Part shown: piece by piece, positions 409-33,422 of the stretch
How the letters are laid out: each line of letters starts with the position of its first letter
Numbering within the stretch: position 1 is the stretch's first letter
Assembly: GCA_012861695.1 (NCBI GenBank)
Contig: JAAOOA010000028.1
Coordinates: 7,356,470 to 7,420,469, forward strand
DNA: 64,000 nucleotides
Origin: Trematomus loennbergii
Lineage: Eukaryota > Chordata > Actinopteri > Perciformes > Nototheniidae
Direction: 5' to 3'
Program-made: the position numbers and the translations under genes
The notes under the pieces: generated by a model
Told to the model about the DNA's origin: nothing
What the model saw: only the letters and a program-made list of their open reading frames with translations
The model's database searches: none

Positions 409-488
409 CTCATATAAGTAGTCAAATATTTCCAGTATAGTTAGGACGCTGGCTCCGATGAACAGTCCCATCTGACCTCCAATGTCAC
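409..488 (-). CDS. asic1c: asic exon 8: pore-lining second membrane helix
   Basis: Encodes the second transmembrane segment, beginning [14 protein letters not shown] and ending DYLYE. It contains the Gly-Ala-Ser selectivity-filter triplet that defines ENaC/ASIC channels. The acceptor is ttctag and the donor is GAG/gtaaag. The 80-nt exon completes the split Gly codon from exon 7 and ends in phase 0. In the ASIC family the next exon encodes the intracellular tail. No convincing tail exon is seen to the left, apart from a weak candidate at 1-27. Confidence 0.95.
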
Positions 489-3400
489 CTAGAAGGAGAG
501 ATGAACAGATATGTGAGGGTACAGGGATGAAACAATAGCGTGTGACGGTGTTTCCTATGCACCTTTCACTTCTCATTCAGTATCTTCAGTAATCTCAGAA
601 TTGTCAAAAGTGTCCAACCAGCCCCAACTTCTCCTCAGACACAACCACAGCTGCCCTTGCAAGAGCATCAGATTATGAAAATGTGTTCAGCCTTTTTCAA
701 GAGTTCAAAGAGGAAACCTCAAAGCACCGGGCGTGAACACACGATGTGAAATGTGCGGCGGCGGCGGCCGCTGAGAGCGCTGATACCGAGGTCAACCACA
801 TTTTTCTGTCACAATAAACCGTAAACGGCGAGAATCTTACCGAGGAGCCCGGCAATTTCATAGGCTTTCTTCTGCTCAATCTTCTCGTAATTCAGAGCTT
901 CAAAGAAGATGTCCATTACCAATATATTTTCTCTGGAGAGAGGACAGACAAGATCACACCCAAAGAGTTTATTGCTGTTATTACATTACAGCAAATAGCA
1001 CCTCTCATTTCCTGTGTAACTATCTTTCATTATTGTTACATTGAAGGTGAACGATGGAGACCCAGGTCATGCTATGCCACAATATACCCATCCATTAACA
1101 GAAGAAAAGAGGCTAAGAACTGCTACCGTATAATACTTACCAATATACTGCTCAGTTTTGTTGAATTTCTTAGCCAGATATTTAGCAGATGCCTTACTGG
1201 GGATCTTAACCATGGACAGCTCCTTGCCATAGCGAGTCATGTTGCAGGGGGTCTCACACACACAGTAATCGTTGTCTTTCTCTACCAAAAAGTCTGTGGA
1301 TGATCAAAGTCATTTCAAGATATTGCGAAGAATCAAACAAACCTGCACACAGAGGCTCTCTAAAAATATCCCTGCACACAACTGAAGAAACAACATACGC
1401 TGCCATCGTTCACTTTCCATGAAAGCAAATAATGACTGAAGCTAGAATACAGTGGAGGGAGAAAAAAAAACTCGTAGGGATTTATTTAACATCGACAAGG
1501 CAGAGACACATCACAAATCTTCCTAATGGAATTTTTATACAATCATTTTACTTTATTATGTTTTGCTTCAGCACTGTCTGAGATCAAAGTAATTTCAAAT
1601 TAAAGCTACGGAGGCATTATATTGAAGCTTGAAAAGTCTCATGAAACTGCCGCTGGACACAAAATGATCACACTAATATTTCTTACTTATGCAATAAAGT
1701 GGGGGGGGCTCACCTAAAGCTGGGTCGGCACAGTCTTTGTACTGCTCAGGTGTGCAAACTGTTGAGGTCCCTGTTTGAAATAACAATAATTATACATATG
1801 ATATAAAAAAAACACATTGGGAAGAAGTATTCACAGCTATATTTTTGATTTGGTACGTCTTTCTGAAATCATACCAGGCATGTGAACCATCCTGCAGTTG
1901 CAGTTCTCCAGCAGGTACCGAGTTTCACAGTCAATGCGGCAGGCGGTGATGCTGTACGTGGAGAAGAATTCAGAGTCTATGGGAGTAGACTTGCAATCTC
2001 CCCAAGGCGGAGGGAGGTACTGAAGCTGAAAGAGAAAACAGCACATGTTTTCCCTCAGTATATCAACAGACAGGATTACAACCAAAAACATAATGCAAGC
2101 CCAGTGCAGTGCAGCCGAGGAAATACAAAAGAAGACAACAAGCTGACAAAACCCAACACAAATGTCTCTCACATAAAAAAATAAATACAGAAGCATCACA
2201 ATGTGCACTGCGACAGTATTGGAACAAAATGTCTGTTCAGACCAACTTTATTTCTCACGTATAGCAGCAAACAGGCGTCATGCATTGCGTATCATAACTG
2301 ATGCAGGTCTAGTCCCCGGTAGGAAGCAGAATACCATGGGAATAGAGACAGGCCTAATACAAATCTGTAAAATATGTAGATTCAGACAGGACACCACAAT
2401 TAATAGACAAACCGTACAACCTGAGAACAGAATTCAGAACAATAAACAGTATTTGAATGGACAAATAAATGAATTGTAGCGATTATACAGAGCTTTATAT
2501 CTTATTTTAGGGAACATTTGATGAATTCCTCATGACTAAATGACTCCTCATAAGCATATAAAAGTGTTTTTTTATTGTAAATTAACTATTGAGATTTTCT
2601 ATTTTAAACCCATGAGTTTTTTTTCTAAAGCTACCCCTGGACTGCAGCCTTGTGAATTAAACAATGAAGTGAAGTCAGTGGGCAGTCTCATTAGAGTAGA
2701 TTCTCATTAAAGCAGGTCATTACATTTACGAGTAACTCAGGGAATTCTAAATGAATCCACTAATGAGGAATATCTAATGCCTGAGTTTTAACTTTTTGGT
2801 TCACAGTAACCATTGGACCCATGGTGCTCGTCTCATAGCGGCAGAAATGTGCCCCGTGTGCAGAGCTTACTTAAACACTCTTTTTTTTACCGACATTTAC
2901 CCACCAACAAGACTTTCAGACAGCTTTTAAAGTCTTGTTTACAGCAATTAAATGGTTAGGACTCATTTTCTTGACACAAACAAACCAATTATTTGTGAAG
3001 GCTAGTGCTGCTTGCTTGGAGCAGATAGCTTCTAATTGCAGAGGGAGGTAGCCAACAGTCTAAAGGTTTCTTCCTGACAAAACTTCACAGAGAGATGAGG
3101 CTGCTGTTGTCACATTAACATACACTGTAATTCCCAGTCATCTCCCCCAGCGCTAACAAGGCTAACTCTGACAATCTAATGTTCATTTAGTCAACAGAAA
3201 GTGACAGAGATAGAGTGGTGTTCGCTCAAGGAGTGGACTTAAACTGGCAAACATTATTAAGCCGTTATTGAACTCCATTTCTAGCCCACAGACTCTCATA
3301 ACAGGAGTGTCGGAAAAAAACAAAAAACTATTCCAGAGTCTTCATGGGTAATAAAACCTAATGAATCACATTGTCTGGCCCCTACAGATGATATTAAGTA

Positions 3401-6400
3401 GCGGTCCAGTGGATCGCCCCGATAACATAAAGGCATAACAAGACAAAAAATGCAAACAGAACTCTATATGGTCGAGAGAGGGTAAAGCCAAACAACAGCT
3501 TTGAGGAAGATACAGACTCGGATTAATGGATTCAAGCTGGAATGAAACCCATTAACTGCTTTTTACTGACAGAGAAGACAAGGGGCAACAGACTGTAGAT
3601 GTTGGATGTCATTGCTTCAGCCACACAGAGGGGGACAGATGGATCCATTCCTTGGGGGGGGGGGGGGGGGGCAGCAGATACGCTACCCTCTGCTCTTGGC
3701 TGGAAACAAACGTTTGGAAGCCAGGGGCGACCCCGAAGACCAGCTGATGGAGGAAAGGAGGCTCAGACTGAGTGTGAAGCTGTACCTTTATGCCGGCCTC
3801 ATAGGACATCTCATCTAGGGCGAGGGGGTGAGGGAACACAGCCCATGTCATTATCAGAATAAGGAGGAGGAGCAACAGCAATGTGAGGGACAGGAAGTGA
3901 TCAACCCCTTTCGGACAAGAGAGTAGTAAATAGAATAAAGAGCTAGGACTCCCAGCAGTGCAAGAAAACTTTTCATCATCGGTATAAATTAAAGATACTA
4001 ACGCAGCGCCAGGAGTTTTTATGTCTCTCATCTGGCAGGTTACCACTATTAAAGGTCGCGTCTAAATCATGACTCAGGGATGCGACTGTTGCCGTAGTCA
4101 TGACAGACGTCATACCCATGTTATTATTTTTAGCGGCAACCAAAAGTGTTTAACATTTTTGATTGTTTGGATCCTTTTGGGAGTTTTTCCTTGTAAGTTG
4201 CAGGGGTCTAGGGACTCTACAGTCCATAAAGCCTGCTGAGACCAGCGTAATTGGTGATATTTGGCTATATACACAACATTTGATTGATTTAATCTGATTC
4301 TACACTGGTGGGTTGTCATTTAGTCACTCTATTCTAATATCCACTCGAGCTCGGGCGACCACAGAGTTCAGTTTCAACCATTACATAATTGTGCTATAAA
4401 ATTGCCTCTCAGATCTCACCAGTCATAGCTTCCTATTAAAAATGAAATTCCTCACTGACAGAGGCTTCACAAATGAGACGTCTAGAAATCACAAGTGCTT
4501 TGTCCAGATGTCAGTTATTACACTGAGAGCAGTGTCACTGTACTCGTGTGAGACTGATTGAAATTAATGCTGGCCAGACTTTAATGACAGTCTAATTAAT
4601 TCAGCACATCTTTGAGGTCGTAAACACGTCTTTTAGCTGCCACTGGTGTGGGCGCTCGTGTCAAGATTATAAATGACAATCCATGTACTTTTGTTTTCAG
4701 GAGGAAACTTTGCGATGTGATTAATAGATCAGATTCACTTCTTAGAGACTGCTGAACGATGATACATTTGGAGCACTTGACACTCCTACATAGGTGAAAA
4801 ATAAACATTACACATTCAAATACTGCTTCCCAACAATATCATTTCTCATCTCTGTGGTGTCCAAATGTCTGTTTTAGGGCACCAAACTCAGCCTCAATAA
4901 TCCCATGTTATTCTGCTAAAACAAAACGGTGGAAGGATGTATTTGATCATTTATCTCATGCTCATGAACTGACCAAGACCATTAACTTAAGGAGCAAAAT
5001 CATTTAAATTGGGCTTGATTAGTTTCTCAAGTAATAATTTAGATTTACTGCTGGGGTATCAATTATTTCGAGACTTCACAAGGACTCATGGATATTATAA
5101 TGAACCTGCGGCATAATACAGAAATGCACTTGATCTCAAAGGCAATCCTTGCAAAATCCTGAAATCCTTTGTGGCACGGGCGCCATTTCCTTGTGTCTTA
5201 CAATGAGGGTTTTTCTCCTTGTCAGAGTATATTTCCCTATTCTTTCCCTGTATCCATATGAAAATGAGTGGGGTTAGGCTTGTGTGCTTATTCTAGTGTA
5301 GAAATAAGAGGCATGATTTGAATGTGTTGTCTTGGCAACATAAAAAAAATGCAGTACAGTTTGATTAATTTGGATACGATGTCCATGTGAGCTCAGAGTT
5401 ACGACCTTGAACAACAGCATTCCGATCAATTCAGGCTCAACTGTAGTTATTACTTTTCATCCTTCACGATATTTCAGGGCTAGAATCAAATTTTCTGCAA
5501 AACCCGCTACAGGCTCTTTTGCTTCCTTTGATATTTTGTGCTAAAACTCACATTTGCTAAGTCCTTAAATCCTAGTGCATTTTAAAACATGTGGGTCAGA
5601 TTTCTCATCTAATGCTGCATGCCTTAAGTGTTAATGAATTAGGAACACAAACTAATGATGACAGGTGCTTCTTTTAATAGGTCAATTTAACATCAAAACT
5701 TCAGGATCATTTAAATATTTCTTTCTTAAGAAAAGAAAGTCATGAGAGGTCAGTTATTTAAAGTGAATCTGATTTTGGCTTTGGCTGCCAGATGACCAAT
5801 TTCGCAATCATTTTTAACGTTACCATTAACATTAAGGGTTTTAATTATAAGAAATGATAAGATTAACTAATTATAAGTAATCTTTGCTTGAAACACGTTG
5901 AATTCGTTTAGTTTTTTTTATTAATCAGATCAAAGCTTGTTGATCGTGGCTGTGTGAATTCTGCTCTCTTTAATTGGCCAGTAGACACATTTCATAGCAT
6001 TCGAATAGGCTGTATTGTTTTTTTTCCTCCACAAACTGAAAGCAAGGAAGACATTTCTAGCTGCCAGATATTTGTGTGTAGTGTGATAGTCTCAGATAAG
6101 CCCAGTATGTTTGTTTTCTTAAATCTAATCATTACTAGGTCTTGCTCTACCAATATTCCTTGGCTGCTATAATCCCTAAGTTTGTACCCTGAACCCCTGG
6201 GTGTTTATATAACACCTTAACAGCACATTTCCCACTCAAGGTAAACCAACGATCTGATTTTGCTCCAGGCTCTGAGACACAGAGGTAATGGGCACTGGCT
6301 GGCAAGGATTTGGGGACAAACACAGAATGAAGCGGAGCGGGAAAAGGTTGAGGCCGGAGTGGAGGAGGCTGAACATTAGGTACCAGTTGCTGCTGACATG

Positions 6401-9400
6401 ACACAAAAGTTTGAAAACCAGGGGCCACACCAAATCCCAGTTGGTCAATGAAGGGCGGCTCGTCCTGGCTGTGGATCTGAACCTTGATGCCTGCTTCGTA
6501 GGAGGTCTCATCTGTGGATACAGCACGCCAGAATATATAACAACAAATAAGATAAGAAAACCTGGGAAAATATTGTGATTATGTTATCTTAATAAAGTAA
6601 TACATCCTCCTGTTATATAAATGATTTGTGACGAGAATAGTTTGGATTTTCAGTGTAACCACTCAAGATGGAGGGATTTTCACAAGGATAAAATGTTACC
6701 GTTTACTGTTTTATACTGACCTGTCTCTCCCCAAACAGGCAGGTATTCATCCTGCTGGATGTCCAACATGATCTCCAAGCCGTTCCCCGTGCCGCCTTTT
6801 AACGTGGTCAACAAAGGGTTGCCGTCTTTTCCAGAGTTGAAAGTGTAGCATTTTCCGTAGCGTGTGTAAATCTGTAAAGAAAGAGCAGAGAAAAAGAAGG
6901 AGCGTAAATGAAAAGTTAAAGCCTTTCCACTGTGCTGTGGTAAATTGTGCACCTTTACAAGATGTATTACATGTCAGCCTGTAATTGTGCAGGACAGCTA
7001 ATCATTGCAGAGGCTTTGTGATTATCAGAGAAACAGTACCGACTGGCACCTGGCTCTGAATTGAGGAATGAATGAGCTTTCCTTCGCAGCAGCCGCAGCT
7101 ATCAATCTTCACCCAATGTTACTCCAAATTTCCTCTGAGTATCTTAAGAAAGAATGTACTATATTGCCGTCATTATTGCCGTCAACACCTGAGGTGAATG
7201 TTCTTGGGACACACACACAAACTCTCACATATTTGTGTGTCTTGACTTACCGCTTGATGTGCAATCTTTACAGTACATTGCCTCACACAAAATATCTTTC
7301 AGATCTAATTAAATGACTTGTTTTCAGCTTTTGCTTTAGAGTCACAGTTGACAGATATTTAATGTTTTTCAAGTTTATGGATTTTCACTGTGATTGGAAA
7401 ATTCTCCACCCTCTGCAAAACAAGTTGCAATAAATCTGCATCACGATTGTAAATGTTGACAGTTGAAACTGAACTCTAGAGTTTGGATCAAGACTACGAA
7501 AACTTACAATTCTGAAAATGGCTTAAAGGATTGTGTCAATTCAAGCTAAGTCTATCAGTTTGAGATAAGATTACCACACAGCAGAATTGATTGGTTATGC
7601 AACACTATGAGGAACTTCAATATCTGTTATTCATGCATTTCATGTCATGGTTTTGGATTTATGTTTTCATTTTCCACTTTTTTATTTTTGAAATGTTTTC
7701 CTCCTTGTGTTTGTCTGATCCTACTTCCTGTGTTTGCCTTCCTGTCGTTAGTTTCCCTGGTTTGTCTGATGGATTGTGTTCACCTGTTGCCCTTGTGTTT
7801 CTGCCTCCCCTGCCCAGCTGTGTCTTGTCCTGTGATTACCCTTTTGTGTATTTAGTCTTGTCTTCCCCTGTGCTCCATGTCTGTTTGTCTCTCCTCGTCT
7901 ATGTTACCTGTCCGTCTCTTGATGTCCATGCTCTTGTCCATGCTACCTGTCACGCTCCATGCTTGTTCCTGAGGTTTTCTGTCCTGATCGGTTTTGGTAA
8001 TGTTAAGTTGTTCCTTGTTTTCTGTTGTCATCAGCTTTGGGAAATAAAGCTCGCTTTTTGTTACCTAACCTTTTAGTCCTCTTACTGCATTTGGGTCCTA
8101 TTTTCCCCACCCCTGACAGAAAAATCTGCACCGTTTTAAAGAAAAGAGTTCATCACAAGTTTATCAAAGTTACAACAATATCTGCTTGTTGGTGTTGGTG
8201 GCAAAAAACTTCAACATCAGATTCATCAAGCCAGATTGGATTTTATTTCAAAATGTAACATCACTTCCTGAAAATATAATAAGGGGAATTCAAACCACAT
8301 TTTTTATAAATGGTTATTTTCAGAACTAGGTCATTCTCAGTTTTTCAAACTTCCATCTAAAACCCTCATTGTTGAATTTAAATAGTGATTTGCTAAATTG
8401 AGCCACACTTCCTACATTAATGATCATGGATGTCCAAATATCCTTCCTTAGCAAACAATAATTGGCCGTACAAACACTGTAGCATCCTGACATGATGCTT
8501 TTGTGGCTGTCGAGGTTTTTCTTCACAACACCAGTAGCACTGGATTGTCATCCAATGGTTAATTTTCACTACCCAGTGTGCTGAGGTTGGGGTGATAGGG
8601 CTTCTGGCAAAAATTCAACCAGCATGGCGAAGCTGATCTCCAGAGATAAGAGTCAGTGTTCCACGTCCAGACACAGACAGATGGGCATGCAGCTCAGATA
8701 GATAAGACAGCTTTGGTCCTTTCCCCCTGCTGGCTGTATAATGAGGTCTGCAAGAGTACTGTAACTAGAGACCTCTCTTTAAAGATTCAGATTTAAGTTT
8801 AGATAAAAAGGAGCTTCATTCTGTCACATCGCAGCCACACCATATATCTCTCTCTCTCCAAGCACAAGACAGTTTAAATCCCAATTATGGCTCCATGCAA
8901 TCTGACCGTCATGCTAGAGATTGCAGAGATTCTGCATTGGTATCTGCAAAACAGGGAAGCCAACGTTGACAGCTGACATACTGCAGTGTGCAAGACTTTG
9001 CATTTCAAATATATTCACTGTAGTAGTCATAGTTACAGGTTAGGTTTTTATGACGCTGTATATACTAATATATCTGGTTAAATGAAGATCCAGTGACAGG
9101 TTACTGCTTTAAATCTACCAGTGTGTCCCAGATTTAAATTATTCTCAGTGCTGTAGAAATAAATTAGTCGCTCTGCAGGCGGATTTCTCACTGTAGAAGT
9201 TTCTCTGTTGAGACTTTAATATTTTCTGATGATGTTAAAGGCTGTTTTGAAAGCATTGGAGAAAGAAATATTACTATTGTGAATAGTGTGACAATAGCAA
9301 ACATCATCCAATTCCTCCATGCAGCATACAGTGCTTACTTAAAACGTAATTAACGTTTTCTTTTAGGCTTTGCTGCATTTTCAATACACACTGCACATGC

Positions 9401-12400
9401 CTTCCAGATGTTTAATAAGGGAAGCTACATTTTTAATTTGAACTGATTTACTTGTTTGAATTATTAATGCTCAAATGTTTCTACCTTTCTATTGTTGTCA
9501 CGGGTCGTAAAGCAAAAAGGCGTTAAAGCAACTGTGAGTAAGAATTGCCAGGCAGAGTATAACCAAAGGAGAAACTAAGAAGAGTGTAAAGAAGACAACA
9601 ACGTCCTTGATGATGACATGCCGTGACATTTTCACCACAACATGAAGGAAGCATTTGTTTCCGGGACTGACTTTTGTGGACGTTTAGTTTAATAAAGAAA
9701 ACATCTGTCACGTGTGAGAGGTAAAAACAGTAAAGGCTTGTTTTCAGCTTTGAAGCTCAAAAACACCCTGAGAGATTGAGGGTGGGTCGTCAAATACTTC
9801 CATGAATTATTAATACACCTTGTAAACAACCATTCATATCCACAGCTGACAACCACCATCTTTCTCTCTGTACATACAGTGCTGAAGTTTTTGTAGGTGC
9901 AGGATTCCCCTCTGAACCTGCACTCCAGCAGCATGTCCTCCAGCTGGTGGCCGAGGCGTCCCATCATCTCTGTGGTGTTGGTGCTGAAATCAGGGGGCGG
10001 GGTGTAGTTTTTGAAGTCCAACAGGTTCAGGAGACCCTGTATGTGGCTGTCTCTGAGCAGGGACACGCTCTGCTCCACCACTGTGTGATTGGGGTACATC
10101 AGGTCCATCCAGTAGCCGCTGTGGTACAGGTCATCCTTGGTCAGAGCGGACATGCGGAACACGTTCTTGTTGCAGAAAGTAACAGCTGGGAAGGACATGT
10201 TGTGAGCCCACACCATGTAGATCTTGGTGATGGCAGGGTAGGACATCAGGTAGAGGATCCGATTCCAGGACAAGGTGCACAGCAGACTGATACAAAGGAA
10301 GAAGGCCATGATCCAGATGACTCGCTGCAGTTTCGACTTGTCCGGAAAGAAGATAAACTTCAAACCATGCACTTTGGTTCTCATTATGAAATCCACAGTG
10401 ATCTCTTTCAGTGTTGGTTTAAGTGATCTGGACTTCTTTTGGACAGGAGTCTCTTGGGCATCACTTTCTTTAAGCGGTGGTCCCATGGCGACTGTTTCGG
10501 ATATTGGTGCTTTAACCATAATTGCTTCTGTTAAGGTGGACGCTTCTTTACTAATTGCTGTTTCTTAGATTCCAACCCTACACATGTCCAATTCACACAC
10601 AACCATCTCCAGGTTTAACTATCACGATTTCCAGGTAGCAGCGACTGGAGTCCTGATGTGAAGCTGTCCCACTGTTCACGCTTGAAAATGATTTGCCGAA
10701 AACAAAGGAACTGAGCTCCTTTGGGGAGGTAAAATTGATTTACATAATGATTCCTTTATGGGAAAAACAGCTGAATCAGTCCATTAATAAAAAAACATCA
10801 TGCGTGGCCATCATCAAGAGATAAATGGACGTGATAATGGCAGATGTTAGCGACGGATTCACTCCCAGAGGCAATCACTTTGAAAATTCGGAGAGGCTTA
10901 CCCCTGTTGCTCTGATCTTTTACTCCTCCATCTCCCTCTCCAGTGCCAGACAATACTTGCAGATTCCGGTGGTTTCTCTCTTTGTGCCGTAGCTGCCCAG
11001 AACCCAACTCCTCCCTTTTTACACAGATTGAAGAGATGCTTTTTAGACTGTTGACTTGCAGCCTGCAGAAAGGAGTATAAAGCTTGTTGCCCCCCTACAC
11101 ACTCTCTCTAGAGTCGAATGGAGAATGAGGTGGAGCCAGTGAATGAAATTGTTTTCCTCCGGTGATGAAGTAGACCTCCGATTGTATAGAGAGGCGGGGA
11201 AGTATCAATCAAAGTACACATAATTGTTATAAAGAAACTCTCAAACAGAAAAATATTGGAGAATCTGCAGCTCGCTCCTGGCTCAATACATCTATATAAT
11301 TGATAACTGAGGGGAGCCCGCTAGTTGGATAAAAACACAGAAAAATCCCCTTAAAAATGTGTTCCAGTATGGCACATCCTCGATCCTCTTTTCTGCCAGT
11401 TTCAAATATAATTTCACAAATGCAATGTAATGAGGGCTGACATGCCGCAGCATGCAGATGTGACTCTGACTAAATAAAAGGTGCTTTGCTCCATTTATGT
11501 GAGTCTATAAAAGTATTCTGTTTGGCAGAAGGGTCACATTCGCACTGAGACTATTTTCCATTATGTTAGCTGGAATCTTTTCATTTTATAATGTGACTGT
11601 TGGCTAAGTAAACTGATTACAGCTGTGGTGATCAAATACACATATTCTGAAAAGGAAACATGGAGACAATGTTGGATAACTGTGTGTAATTGAGGTAAAG
11701 GGTCCCCATTTTAAGTTAAGCAATACATTGGACTGTATACATTTGATTGGATTGGCATTTTCAAAACATTTGAATTTATCTGCAGCCAATTTAATAAAAG
11801 ACTAAATCATTTAATTATAACAAAGAGAGAATCATGCAGAACAGTTTTGTCTGTGTTCAAAAGTTGTAACATTAATGAATGTCTGGATACAGAAAAGAGA
11901 AGCCTCATTAACAGCACAGTGCTAACAGTTGTTGTCCCTGCTATCTTTCAGGGCTTTATGGTCAAAAAAAGAAAAACATCTAAATGAATTGCAGGGGTCC
12001 AGCTTCCCTAACAGCTATTGGATTTCATGTTTGCACAACACCTAATTTGTTCTTACTGGAATGCAACACAGCTGCTTGACATTGCTTTCTCTTTAGCCTT
12101 ATGTTCAAAACTTTTTATTTTTAGAAACAACCAGATGGGCTGTGTTTAATTGCACTATTAAAGATTCTCTTTATGTTTGGGAAAGATTCATTCAAAGTAA
12201 ACAAAACGCTGTATTTTGGCATGAGTGTAGATAACTATGTCAGACACAATAACAAAGCAAAACAAAGAAGAGAAAAATACTAATGCTTCATGAGCGCTCC
12301 GCCAGTAACTAACTCCAACAATAAAACCTTATCAGAGTTAAAGCTGACTGCCTGGTTTCTCCACCTATTGGCCAGCTGCATGGACTTCCTTTATTCTTGG

Positions 12401-31541: not shown

Positions 31542-32867
31542 TTCTAGAAAAATAAAAAACAGTGCCCAAACTCTCTTGCTGTTGCTCAGTTATTACCTCC
31601 ACTTTTTTACTGCTTTTTCTGGCCTTCTACTCTCCGGGGCGATGTGTACAGAACCTGTCTATTAAGCTTTATAAACTGTAAACTTTGAGGACCAACTTTT
31701 CATTTCACAGCGGTGCGGAAAATAAATAATACTAAACTTTTGCAGCTGCTACAGGGGTGTAAGATTTCTTTCCATACAGCACCAGAGCCTATTGTGTTGA
31801 ATGTAAAGCTATTCTCAGAGCAGATCTCTTCCTCTCTTTTCGTCTGGGCCCTTTGGCAGACAGTGAAGTGAGAAGCTTCCATTATCCTTCTCAACTGCTC
31901 CTTAACAAGCTCTCCTGTGTGCCTCAGAGCTATCTGCCATGCATCTCCACTGTTTATCCACCGAGCGTTTGCTCCAGACACAGTCCCCAAAAATGGTCTT
32001 CTCCCCCTGGGTAGTGCCGTCTTCTGTGATTCTCCAACAGAAAGATACTTTTAAAATTCAAACAGATATATTTCCTTTGTATATTTGTGAAAAACACACT
32101 GATGCTTAAGCGATGCTAGTTGATATATCTGAAGATACAAACTAAAAAAGGATTTGTGCTCCTAACGTTTGACATTTGTCTACTTCAATTATTGGGTTTA
32201 TTTGGTTATGACAGCCTAATGAAGTGTCAGTGAGTACACTGACACAGTGATGAAAGCACTTCAAAGAATCTTTTTGTGCCCGGATTTAATTAATAGAGAC
32301 TGGCAGCAGGTGGCAATGTTTATTTAGCCAGAGATACAGTATTGTGGAAAGGTGCTTTGTGTCGGAAACACTGATTGTGAACGAGAAAGACTCTTGTAAT
32401 GACTACTTAGGCAACAGAATACAACATCTAAGCCATAAATTGTACCTTAACAATAATAATGACGTTCAGTTTGTTTCCATTTCTGTATGCCTGTTTTTTT
32501 GTTCCTTTTATTGTTTATTTCTTTTATATGTGTGTTTTTATTGCTTGAAAAGTGTTCTATGAATAAAACACTAACACAAAATAGTATTATCGTCAATAGC
32601 TTTGTAGCCTCAGCAGATGTGACAGAGCTTTTGTACTGGAATGCATATGTGTACATAAAAATGTGGCCATGGTGTTAACCTTTTCATTTGCATTTCAGTG
32701 CAGAAAAGCATATATATTAACTCTGCATGCATAGTGGAAGCAGCAGGCAGATCAACTTAAAGTATTGGAAATCTAACAAAGCTTACAGAGCTTAAGAGTT
32801 AACCAGGAAACAAGACACTAATGAATCGATGAATAAAGTGCTGTTAAATTGTACTGACAATGTGTGA

Positions 32868-33144
<277 letters not shown>

Positions 33145-33422
33145 TGAATTCCAGTCATAGAGCCCCAAATGATGTGTTAGCAAACACTCTGTCCGAGTCC
33201 AGATCGTGTCGGCAGAGGAGCCTCCAAATGAGGTCTCGGCGGAGACTTGTGAGCTCTGTGAAATGTGATACATTTGTTTTATTCTCATAGATGTCACATT
33301 CAGTTGTTTCATTTTAAAATGACTCAAGCCACCGCATTCAAACAAAGTGTCTTTCCACCTACTCCACAGCATTAATGATAACTGTCATTTATTTAATCTG
33401 AAGCAAATCTTATCATAATATA

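What the first reader, a model, noticed from the sequence alone, without database searches (positions are those of the whole stretch)
3687..6511. Two intact copies of asic exon 3, probably mutually exclusive
Exon 3 (6384-6511) and exon 3' (3687-3814) have the same length (128 nt) and the same phases (1 in, 0 out), with working GT-AG sites. They agree at 33 of 43 residues while many synonymous positions differ, the pattern expected when both copies are kept as protein. Inclusion of both, or of neither, shifts the frame, so one-or-the-other splicing is required for a working channel. I know of no described mutually exclusive exon in the extracellular domain of a vertebrate ASIC.
Basis: partly seen in the sequence, partly recalled or inferred. 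Interest (0 to 1): 0.86.

Follow-up and report, generated by a model that had tools for sequence, protein, structure and literature searches.

The report
Ancient either-or exon in fish acid sensor
A fish acid-sensing ion channel gene carries two interchangeable versions of one small exon, one resembling the ASIC1 version and one the ASIC2 version, so a single gene can probably make two different acid sensors, and the second version recurs in relatives as distant as sharks and frogs.

Summary
On the minus strand of an asic1c gene lie two intact 128-nt copies of exon 3 (6511-6384 and 3814-3687), same phases, GT-AG sites, 33 of 43 residues shared. Synonymous change is saturated (26 of 28.6 sites) while protein is kept; both or neither shifts the frame. 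Window exons 1B-6 translate identically to Trematomus bernacchii ASIC1C, so this is an Antarctic notothenioid or near kin.

The pair is neither local nor recent. Listed public ASIC1C models of teleosts nearly always carry one copy or the other; models of sister species identical over exons 2 and 4-8 differ in exon 3 (Anguilla, Oncorhynchus, Syngnathus). The second copy (B type) also occurs in ASIC1C genes of sharks, rays, reedfish, coelacanth and Xenopus; the first (A type) in sturgeon, gar, bowfin, caecilian, turtles and birds. ASIC1 rows are A (103 of 103), ASIC2 rows B (41 of 41). One fish gene can thus probably choose by splicing between forms otherwise fixed in ASIC1 and ASIC2.

Not shown: RNA evidence; whether the pair predates the ASIC gene duplications (43 columns, AU p 0.064-0.148). 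Against: window exon 7 is one base short, and exon 3' has Val at an otherwise invariant Gly.

The parts
6384..6511 (-). asic1c exon 3 (A type, ASIC1-like), 128 nt
   Evidence: identical to the corresponding part of Trematomus bernacchii ASIC1C X1
3687..3814 (-). asic1c exon 3' (B type, ASIC2-like), 128 nt, alternative to exon 3
   Evidence: relatives in ASIC1C isoforms of many fishes
6721..6871 (-). exon 2, spliced to exon 3 or 3'
1875..2025 (-). exon 4, joined by exon 3 or 3'
1714..1770 (-). exon 5
1141..1293 (-). exon 6
841..932 (-). exon 7; its junction with exon 6 is one base short of the reading frame in this window
409..488 (-). exon 8; the rest of the coding sequence was not found in 1-408 and probably lies beyond the window
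9878..10519 (-). alternative first exon 1B
   Evidence: 100% to T. bernacchii P0115
21086..21610 (-). alternative first exon 1A
   Evidence: 89% to P0120
6223..6383 (-). intron just downstream of exon 3, similar in translated contigs of other fish
   Evidence: P0060 to 6223, P0085 further; shorter in Solea P0028
3589..3686 (-). intron just downstream of exon 3', with weak donor; patchy similarity to other fish contigs
   Evidence: P0011, P0020, P0021; beyond the first 9 nt the separate matches are weak, E about 0.06

Best explanation
Exons 3 and 3' are a mutually exclusive pair in asic1c, a gene that falls with amniote ASIC3. Each transcript takes one 43-residue cassette (residues 237-279 in human ASIC1a numbering, near the acidic pocket and in the beta-ball; numbering and placement partly recalled). 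The wrong number of copies shifts the frame, so two-copy and no-copy transcripts yield early stops and would be removed by nonsense-mediated decay. The A cassette is ASIC1-like and the B cassette ASIC2-like. Choosing B replaces the acidic residues D253 and D259 (by Ser and His here), Cys275 by Ser, and the end QQQL by QEQR, which should shift the pH dependence of activation or desensitization. Shown: intact frames and sites, saturated synonymous change with conserved protein, either-or use in most listed public models, B-type exon 3 in ASIC1C of sharks, reedfish, coelacanth and Xenopus, similar flanking introns in other fish. Inferred: splicing in this animal, decay of misspliced RNA, the functional effect. 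Also inferred, less surely: that the pair is at least as old as bony vertebrates and that one copy or the other was lost elsewhere.
For: Sequence and frame. Identity of the gene: exons 1B-6 identical to T. bernacchii ASIC1C X1; all 43 ASIC1C/ASIC3 rows on one side of a branch, SH-aLRT 94; tree without exon 3. Either-or use: of 116 listed proteins nearest to ASIC1C/3, 80 carry A alone, 31 B alone, 2 both in full (P0002, P0003), 2 both in part (P0004, P0122), and 1 is an intermediate (Coturnix); a 117th row, P0208, is an ASIC4. Six pairs of rows are identical over exons 2 and 4-8 but differ in exon 3 type, among them two Anguilla and two Syngnathus species. On the tree without exon 3 the A/B label changes at least 11 times within ASIC1C/3; counted on 27 teleost rows alone it changes 8 times, as expected if both are available in one gene. 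Depth: B in 20 teleost rows, 8 cartilaginous-fish rows, Erpetoichthys, Latimeria and Xenopus. Exons 3 and 3' have the two weakest donors of ten by a recalled matrix, -0.19 and -1.07. Intron sequence after exon 3 matches translated contigs of other fish well, that around exon 3' more weakly. Function: PMC12658276 (passages only) reports that D259N and E254Q shift desensitization pH and lists D253 among residues with published effects.
Against: No RNA was examined; public isoforms are predictions. As printed, the window gene is frame-shifted at exon 6/7 whichever exon 3 is used. Exon 3' of this species has Val at an invariant Gly and Met at 239, and B exons vary more than A exons in teleosts (mean 5.1 against 0.5 differences per pair; 20 and 41 rows), so B may be under weaker constraint, or dead here. 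The donors of exons 3 and 3' are matched or beaten by 10% and 15% of the 3833 GTs on the strand, so they could also simply be poor sites. No notothenioid B protein was listed (five notothenioid rows, all A). No listed model shows both types within one non-teleost species. The exon tree has 43 columns and its bootstrap had not settled: a teleost-only origin (A and B of teleosts one clade) is disfavoured by 22 log units but p-AU is 0.064; one clade of all ASIC1C/3 exons has p 0.148. PMC12658276 calls its beta-ball effects small.
Confidence: 0.82

Rival explanations
1. A teleost-side tandem duplication of exon 3, with the second copy drifting by convergence towards the ASIC2 sequence. It would still be a mutually exclusive exon but younger (this rival concerns age and overlaps with the best explanation).
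For: Both copies in one model are seen only in teleosts (P0002, P0003, P0004, P0122); the AU test does not reject teleost A plus B as one clade at 5% (p 0.064).
Against: B-type exons in ASIC1C genes of sharks, rays, reedfish, coelacanth and Xenopus; saturated synonymous sites; the free exon tree puts all 39 B rows on one side, 84/95, and loses 22 log units when teleost A and B are forced together.
Confidence: 0.12
2. Exon 3' was copied into asic1c from an ASIC2 gene by exon transfer or gene conversion.
For: B of percomorph ASIC1C and shark ASIC2 differ at a single residue over [32 protein letters not shown].
Against: ASIC2 exon 3 rows (12) form their own clade, 98/86, in 96% of 200 bootstrap trees, and no ASIC1C B exon lies within it; B exons in several old ASIC1C lineages would need an early transfer.
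Confidence: 0.05
3. Exon 3' is a relic or a poison exon in this species: spliced in rarely, giving frame-shifted RNA, with no protein made from it.
For: Val at an invariant Gly; one base short at exon 7; weak donor; no notothenioid B protein listed.
Against: Open frame, GT-AG sites and unchanged length after saturated synonymous change; intact B isoforms across teleosts. T. bernacchii P0115 is normal at exon 6/7, so the missing base may be an allele or assembly slip.
Confidence: 0.15
4. Chance similarity or an assembly duplicate of exon 3.
For: None found.
Against: 38 of 128 nt differ, no repeat family linking the flanks of the two copies was reported, and relatives of each copy occur in other genomes.
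Confidence: 0.01

Closest known systems
Mutually exclusive exon pairs in other proteins (AMPA receptor flip/flop, Nav exon 5N/5A, Drosophila Dscam; all recalled)
   Same: Homologous tandem exons, each encoding the same piece of the protein, one used per transcript.
   Different: Here the pair lies in the ectodomain of an ASIC, is 128 nt long so that the frame enforces one copy, and its two types match two paralogous genes, ASIC1 and ASIC2.
Known ASIC splice forms: ASIC1a/1b and ASIC2a/2b (differences recalled), human ASIC3 C-terminal variants (PMC7801124, passages)
   Same: Same gene family; splicing changes channel properties.
   Different: Those change the N-terminal part or the C terminus, not an internal ectodomain cassette. 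Alternative first exons 1A and 1B are also present here and add to the choice.
ASIC1 and ASIC2 paralogues
   Same: ASIC1 rows carry the A cassette (103 of 103) and ASIC2 rows the B cassette (41 of 41).
   Different: In fish asic1c both cassettes sit in one gene.

Membership tests
Mutually exclusive exon pair | Adjacent homologous exons of same length and phases with GT-AG splice sites | tested here: met
Mutually exclusive exon pair | Both copies kept as protein | tested here: met
   (saturated synonymous change, dN 0.135) and intact B in 31 ASIC1C/3 rows; weaker for this species (Val at invariant Gly)
Mutually exclusive exon pair | Both or neither incompatible with the reading frame | tested here: met
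Mutually exclusive exon pair | Transcripts contain exactly one copy | tested here: inconclusive
   public models: 80 A, 31 B, 4 with both in full or part, 1 intermediate, of 116; no RNA reads examined
ASIC1C / ASIC3 clade | Protein groups with ASIC1C | tested here: met
   exons 1B-6 identical to T. bernacchii ASIC1C X1; ASIC1C/3 rows on one side of a branch, SH-aLRT 94, unrooted
ASIC1C / ASIC3 clade | Full-length open reading frame through the second membrane helix | tested here: not met
   window is one base short at exon 6/7; T. bernacchii P0115 and four other notothenioid rows are normal there
ASIC1C / ASIC3 clade | Proton-gated current | not testable with these tools
   needs electrophysiology

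The most novel reading that the evidence does not exclude
The either-or exon pair is older than the vertebrate ASIC genes. The ancestral gene chose between A and B by splicing; after duplication ASIC1 kept only A, ASIC2 only B, and the ASIC1C/ASIC3 gene kept both, still in use in teleosts, with B lost in amniotes and A lost (or unseen) in sharks. A splicing choice was thus turned into separate genes.
Probability: 0.4. Interest if true: 0.78.

Novelty: new member of a known kind. Interest (0 to 1): 0.63.

Why it matters
ASIC1 and ASIC2 differ in proton sensitivity (recalled), and the residues responsible are still being mapped. Fish seem to keep a natural 43-residue switch between ASIC1-like and ASIC2-like sequence in one gene, with ten substitutions here including two acidic residues near the acidic pocket. 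It gives a ready experiment: two isoforms that differ only in that cassette. If the age holds, it would be a clear case of a splicing choice turned into separate paralogous genes in an ion channel family.

Tried and rejected
Structure prediction of a B isoform (P0006) and an A isoform (P0120) on 38-row alignments failed: mean pLDDT 47.9 and 51.1, so nothing was drawn from them. The request to search the window's own genome did not complete. I found no route to other species' DNA, so dN/dS across species, nucleotide trees and splice-site comparison were not done; intron similarity was read only from translated contig ORFs and gene models, several of them unnamed, so their distance from this fish is unknown. 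I did not search for intron base-pairing, and did not scan the viral or genome contig collections. Literature: ten searches. I saw listings only, apart from passages of PMC12658276, PMC8388743, PMC7801124 and PMC10507113; 'asic1c' or its long name occurs in 4 held papers, of which I saw titles and abstract starts. Two papers looked up by DOI are not held, so absence from print is not established. An import from ASIC2 and an assembly duplicate were considered and rejected. Protein searches listed only the best 120 of 184, 691 and 1084 hits, two of the three queries were B exons and the third held one, and the database is clustered at 90%, so a row hides isoforms that differ only in exon 3: counts are not frequencies, and absence of a type in a lineage is weak evidence.
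Full report
The sequence. The gene lies on the minus strand. Exon 3 is 6511-6384 and exon 3' is 3814-3687, so exon 3' comes second in the transcript, after an intron of 2569 nt. Both are 128 nt, start in phase 1 and end in phase 0, with AG before and GT after. The peptides are (D)[42 protein letters not shown] and (D)[42 protein letters not shown]: 33 of 43 residues agree. Of 38 nucleotide differences in the 126 bases of whole codons, 26 are at third positions. By Nei-Gojobori 26 of 28.6 synonymous sites differ and dN is 0.135; dS cannot be computed. With 38 random changes, 25% of 20000 runs stay open and none keeps within ten residue changes.

The gene. Around the pair I placed first exons 1A (21610-21086) and 1B (10519-9878) and exons 2, 4, 5, 6, 7 and 8; the rest of the coding sequence was not found in the window. 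Exons 1B, 2, 3, 4, 5 and 6 translate to exactly the start of Trematomus bernacchii ASIC1C isoform X1, P0115; Notothenia, Pseudochaenichthys and Eleginops are next by exon 1B. The window is therefore from a Trematomus or very near kin. A third first-exon type known from other fishes was not found in the window.

One or the other. Splicing in both copies gives a stop at residue 277, neither at residue 244, of the 1A isoform; either copy alone stays open through exon 6. The donors of exons 3 and 3' score lowest of the ten exons by a recalled frequency matrix, and both lack G at +5, as does exon 8; 10% and 15% of the 3833 GTs on the strand score as high. The intron between them is 2569 nt long, so crowding of splice sites does not explain exclusivity; the frame, regulated weak donors and decay of wrong products are the likely means (inference).

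A caution about this window. Exon 6 ends one base into a codon and exon 7 supplies one base too few before GAA AAT, so as printed every isoform shifts frame there; P0115 and four other notothenioid rows read YIGEN at that place. This may be an assembly slip, an allele or real decay. Exon 3' also has Val where 38 aligned relatives have an invariant Gly, and Met at 239, which among the listed B exons only Coryphaenoides shares.

Relatives. Three protein searches drew on exon 3' of the window, exon 3' of Halichoeres P0006, and exons 2-4 of shark P0128 (the best 120 of 184, 691 and 1084 hits listed; 271 different proteins in hand). I call A the type with D259, Q260 and C275 (human ASIC1a numbering, recalled) and B the type without D259 and with S, T or V at 275. 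Genes were assigned by the nearest of 69 reference rows, exon 3 masked. Of the 271, 7 short contig ORFs could not be assigned. The rest: ASIC1, 103 of 103 A; ASIC2, 41 of 41 B; lamprey, 3 of 3 B; nearest to ASIC1C/3, 117, of which one (P0208) is an ASIC4 by its name. The other 116 are 80 A, 31 B, 2 with both in full, 2 with both in part, and 1 intermediate (Coturnix, H259 with C275). The four with both are Knipowitschia P0002, Coregonus P0003, Coryphaenoides P0004 and Coilia P0122; the Coilia second copy is B-like but keeps C275. In P0003 the stretch between the two copies looks like intron read through.

Spread. The 31 B rows are 20 teleost rows (among them Halichoeres, Takifugu, Menidia, Epinephelus, Amphiprion, Nothobranchius, Gasterosteus, pipefishes, salmonids, Scleropages, Anguilla and Pygocentrus), 8 cartilaginous-fish rows, and Erpetoichthys, Latimeria and Xenopus. 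A in ASIC1C/3 is listed for 41 teleost rows, and for sturgeons, gar, bowfin, a caecilian, turtles and birds. So both types occur in osteoglossomorphs, elopomorphs, otocephalans and euteleosts, mostly in different species of each group, which places the pair at the base of living teleosts or earlier.

Trees. Without exon 3 (227 columns, 69 rows) the 43 ASIC1C/3 rows, A and B alike, fall on one side of a branch of an unrooted tree (SH-aLRT 94; only 8 of 60 inner branches starred; Xenopus and Pelusios are long and their places unsure), so the B rows are unlikely to be ASIC2 genes misnamed. On that tree the A/B label must change at least 11 times within ASIC1C/3, and six pairs of rows are identical over exons 2 and 4-8 yet differ in type, such as Anguilla anguilla B with A. 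rostrata A. These pairs are across species, not within one. The exon-only tree (43 columns, 74 rows, 48 different; bootstrap not settled) puts the 39 B rows together against all A rows (84/95) and ASIC2 in its own clade (98/86); the intermediate Coturnix and ASIC4 rows fall on the A side. Forcing teleost A and B together (31 rows, one set of identical rows left free) costs 22 log units (p-AU 0.064), forcing all ASIC1C/3 together 16 (p 0.148). I chose the A/B rule after seeing the sequences, so the grouping is descriptive.

Introns. Translated contigs of other fishes continue to match the window past exon 3: for about 160 nt in P0060 and further in P0085, with a shorter match in Solea P0028. 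Around exon 3' the likeness is weaker: the donor-side reading VAY recurs in P0020, P0021, Scleropages P0126 and Coregonus P0003 (VVY in P0011), and patches further on match with E near 0.06 in P0011 and P0020. Conserved flanks are a mark of regulated exons (recalled), but P0060, P0085, P0011, P0020 and P0021 have no species name, so part may reflect short divergence.

Function. Exon 3 covers residues 237-279. Glu238, Glu242, Lys246 and Glu254 are the same in both copies. D253 becomes Ser, D259 His, C275 Ser, and the end becomes QEQR. In human ASIC1a, D259N and E254Q shift desensitization to more acidic pH, and D253 is listed among residues with published effects, though beta-ball effects are called small (PMC12658276, passages). 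B should thus change the pH dependence; direction and size are not predicted. Solved ASIC1 and ASIC2 structures cover this stretch; my own models failed.

Verdict. An ordinary kind of device, a mutually exclusive exon, in an unexpected place and apparently very old. That exon 3' is a real alternative exon in teleost asic1c I hold at about 0.9; that it works in this very animal at about 0.75; that the pair is older than living bony vertebrates at about 0.6; that it predates the ASIC gene duplications at about 0.4. Public predicted isoforms already contain it; none of my ten searches of held papers turned up a description.

Noticed in passing
window 932 and 1141: The exon 6/7 junction of asic1c is one base short of the frame, while T. 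bernacchii P0115 is normal there.
   Followed up: partly
window 21610-21086 and 10519-9878: Two alternative first exons; a third type seen in other fishes (starting MKGSSEESIES) is not in the window.
   Followed up: partly
window 4718-4644, minus strand: Inside the intron between exons 3 and 3', a short stretch ([13 protein letters not shown]) resembles the start of first exon 1B of relatives (E 0.015 at best): perhaps a relic, perhaps chance.
   Followed up: no
window 3654-3671: A run of 18 G (C in the transcript) begins 16 nt into the intron after exon 3'; such C runs can bind splicing factors (recalled).
   Followed up: no
window 32792-33372: Long GT/CA repeat, inferred from two ORFs made largely of Val-Cys repeats.
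   Followed up: no
ASIC1C rows of teleosts: B exons are far more variable than A exons (mean 5.1 against 0.5 residue differences per pair; 20 and 41 rows).
   Followed up: partly
ASIC1C tree: Fish ASIC1C falls with amniote ASIC3 on one side of the tree, whereas a zebrafish review treats zASIC1.3 (asic1c by recall) as a paralogue of zASIC1.1 (PMC8388743, passages).
   Followed up: partly
lamprey P0123-P0125: Lamprey ASIC rows with three different first exons share one B-type exon 3, as if the multiple-first-exon layout were already present.
   Followed up: no
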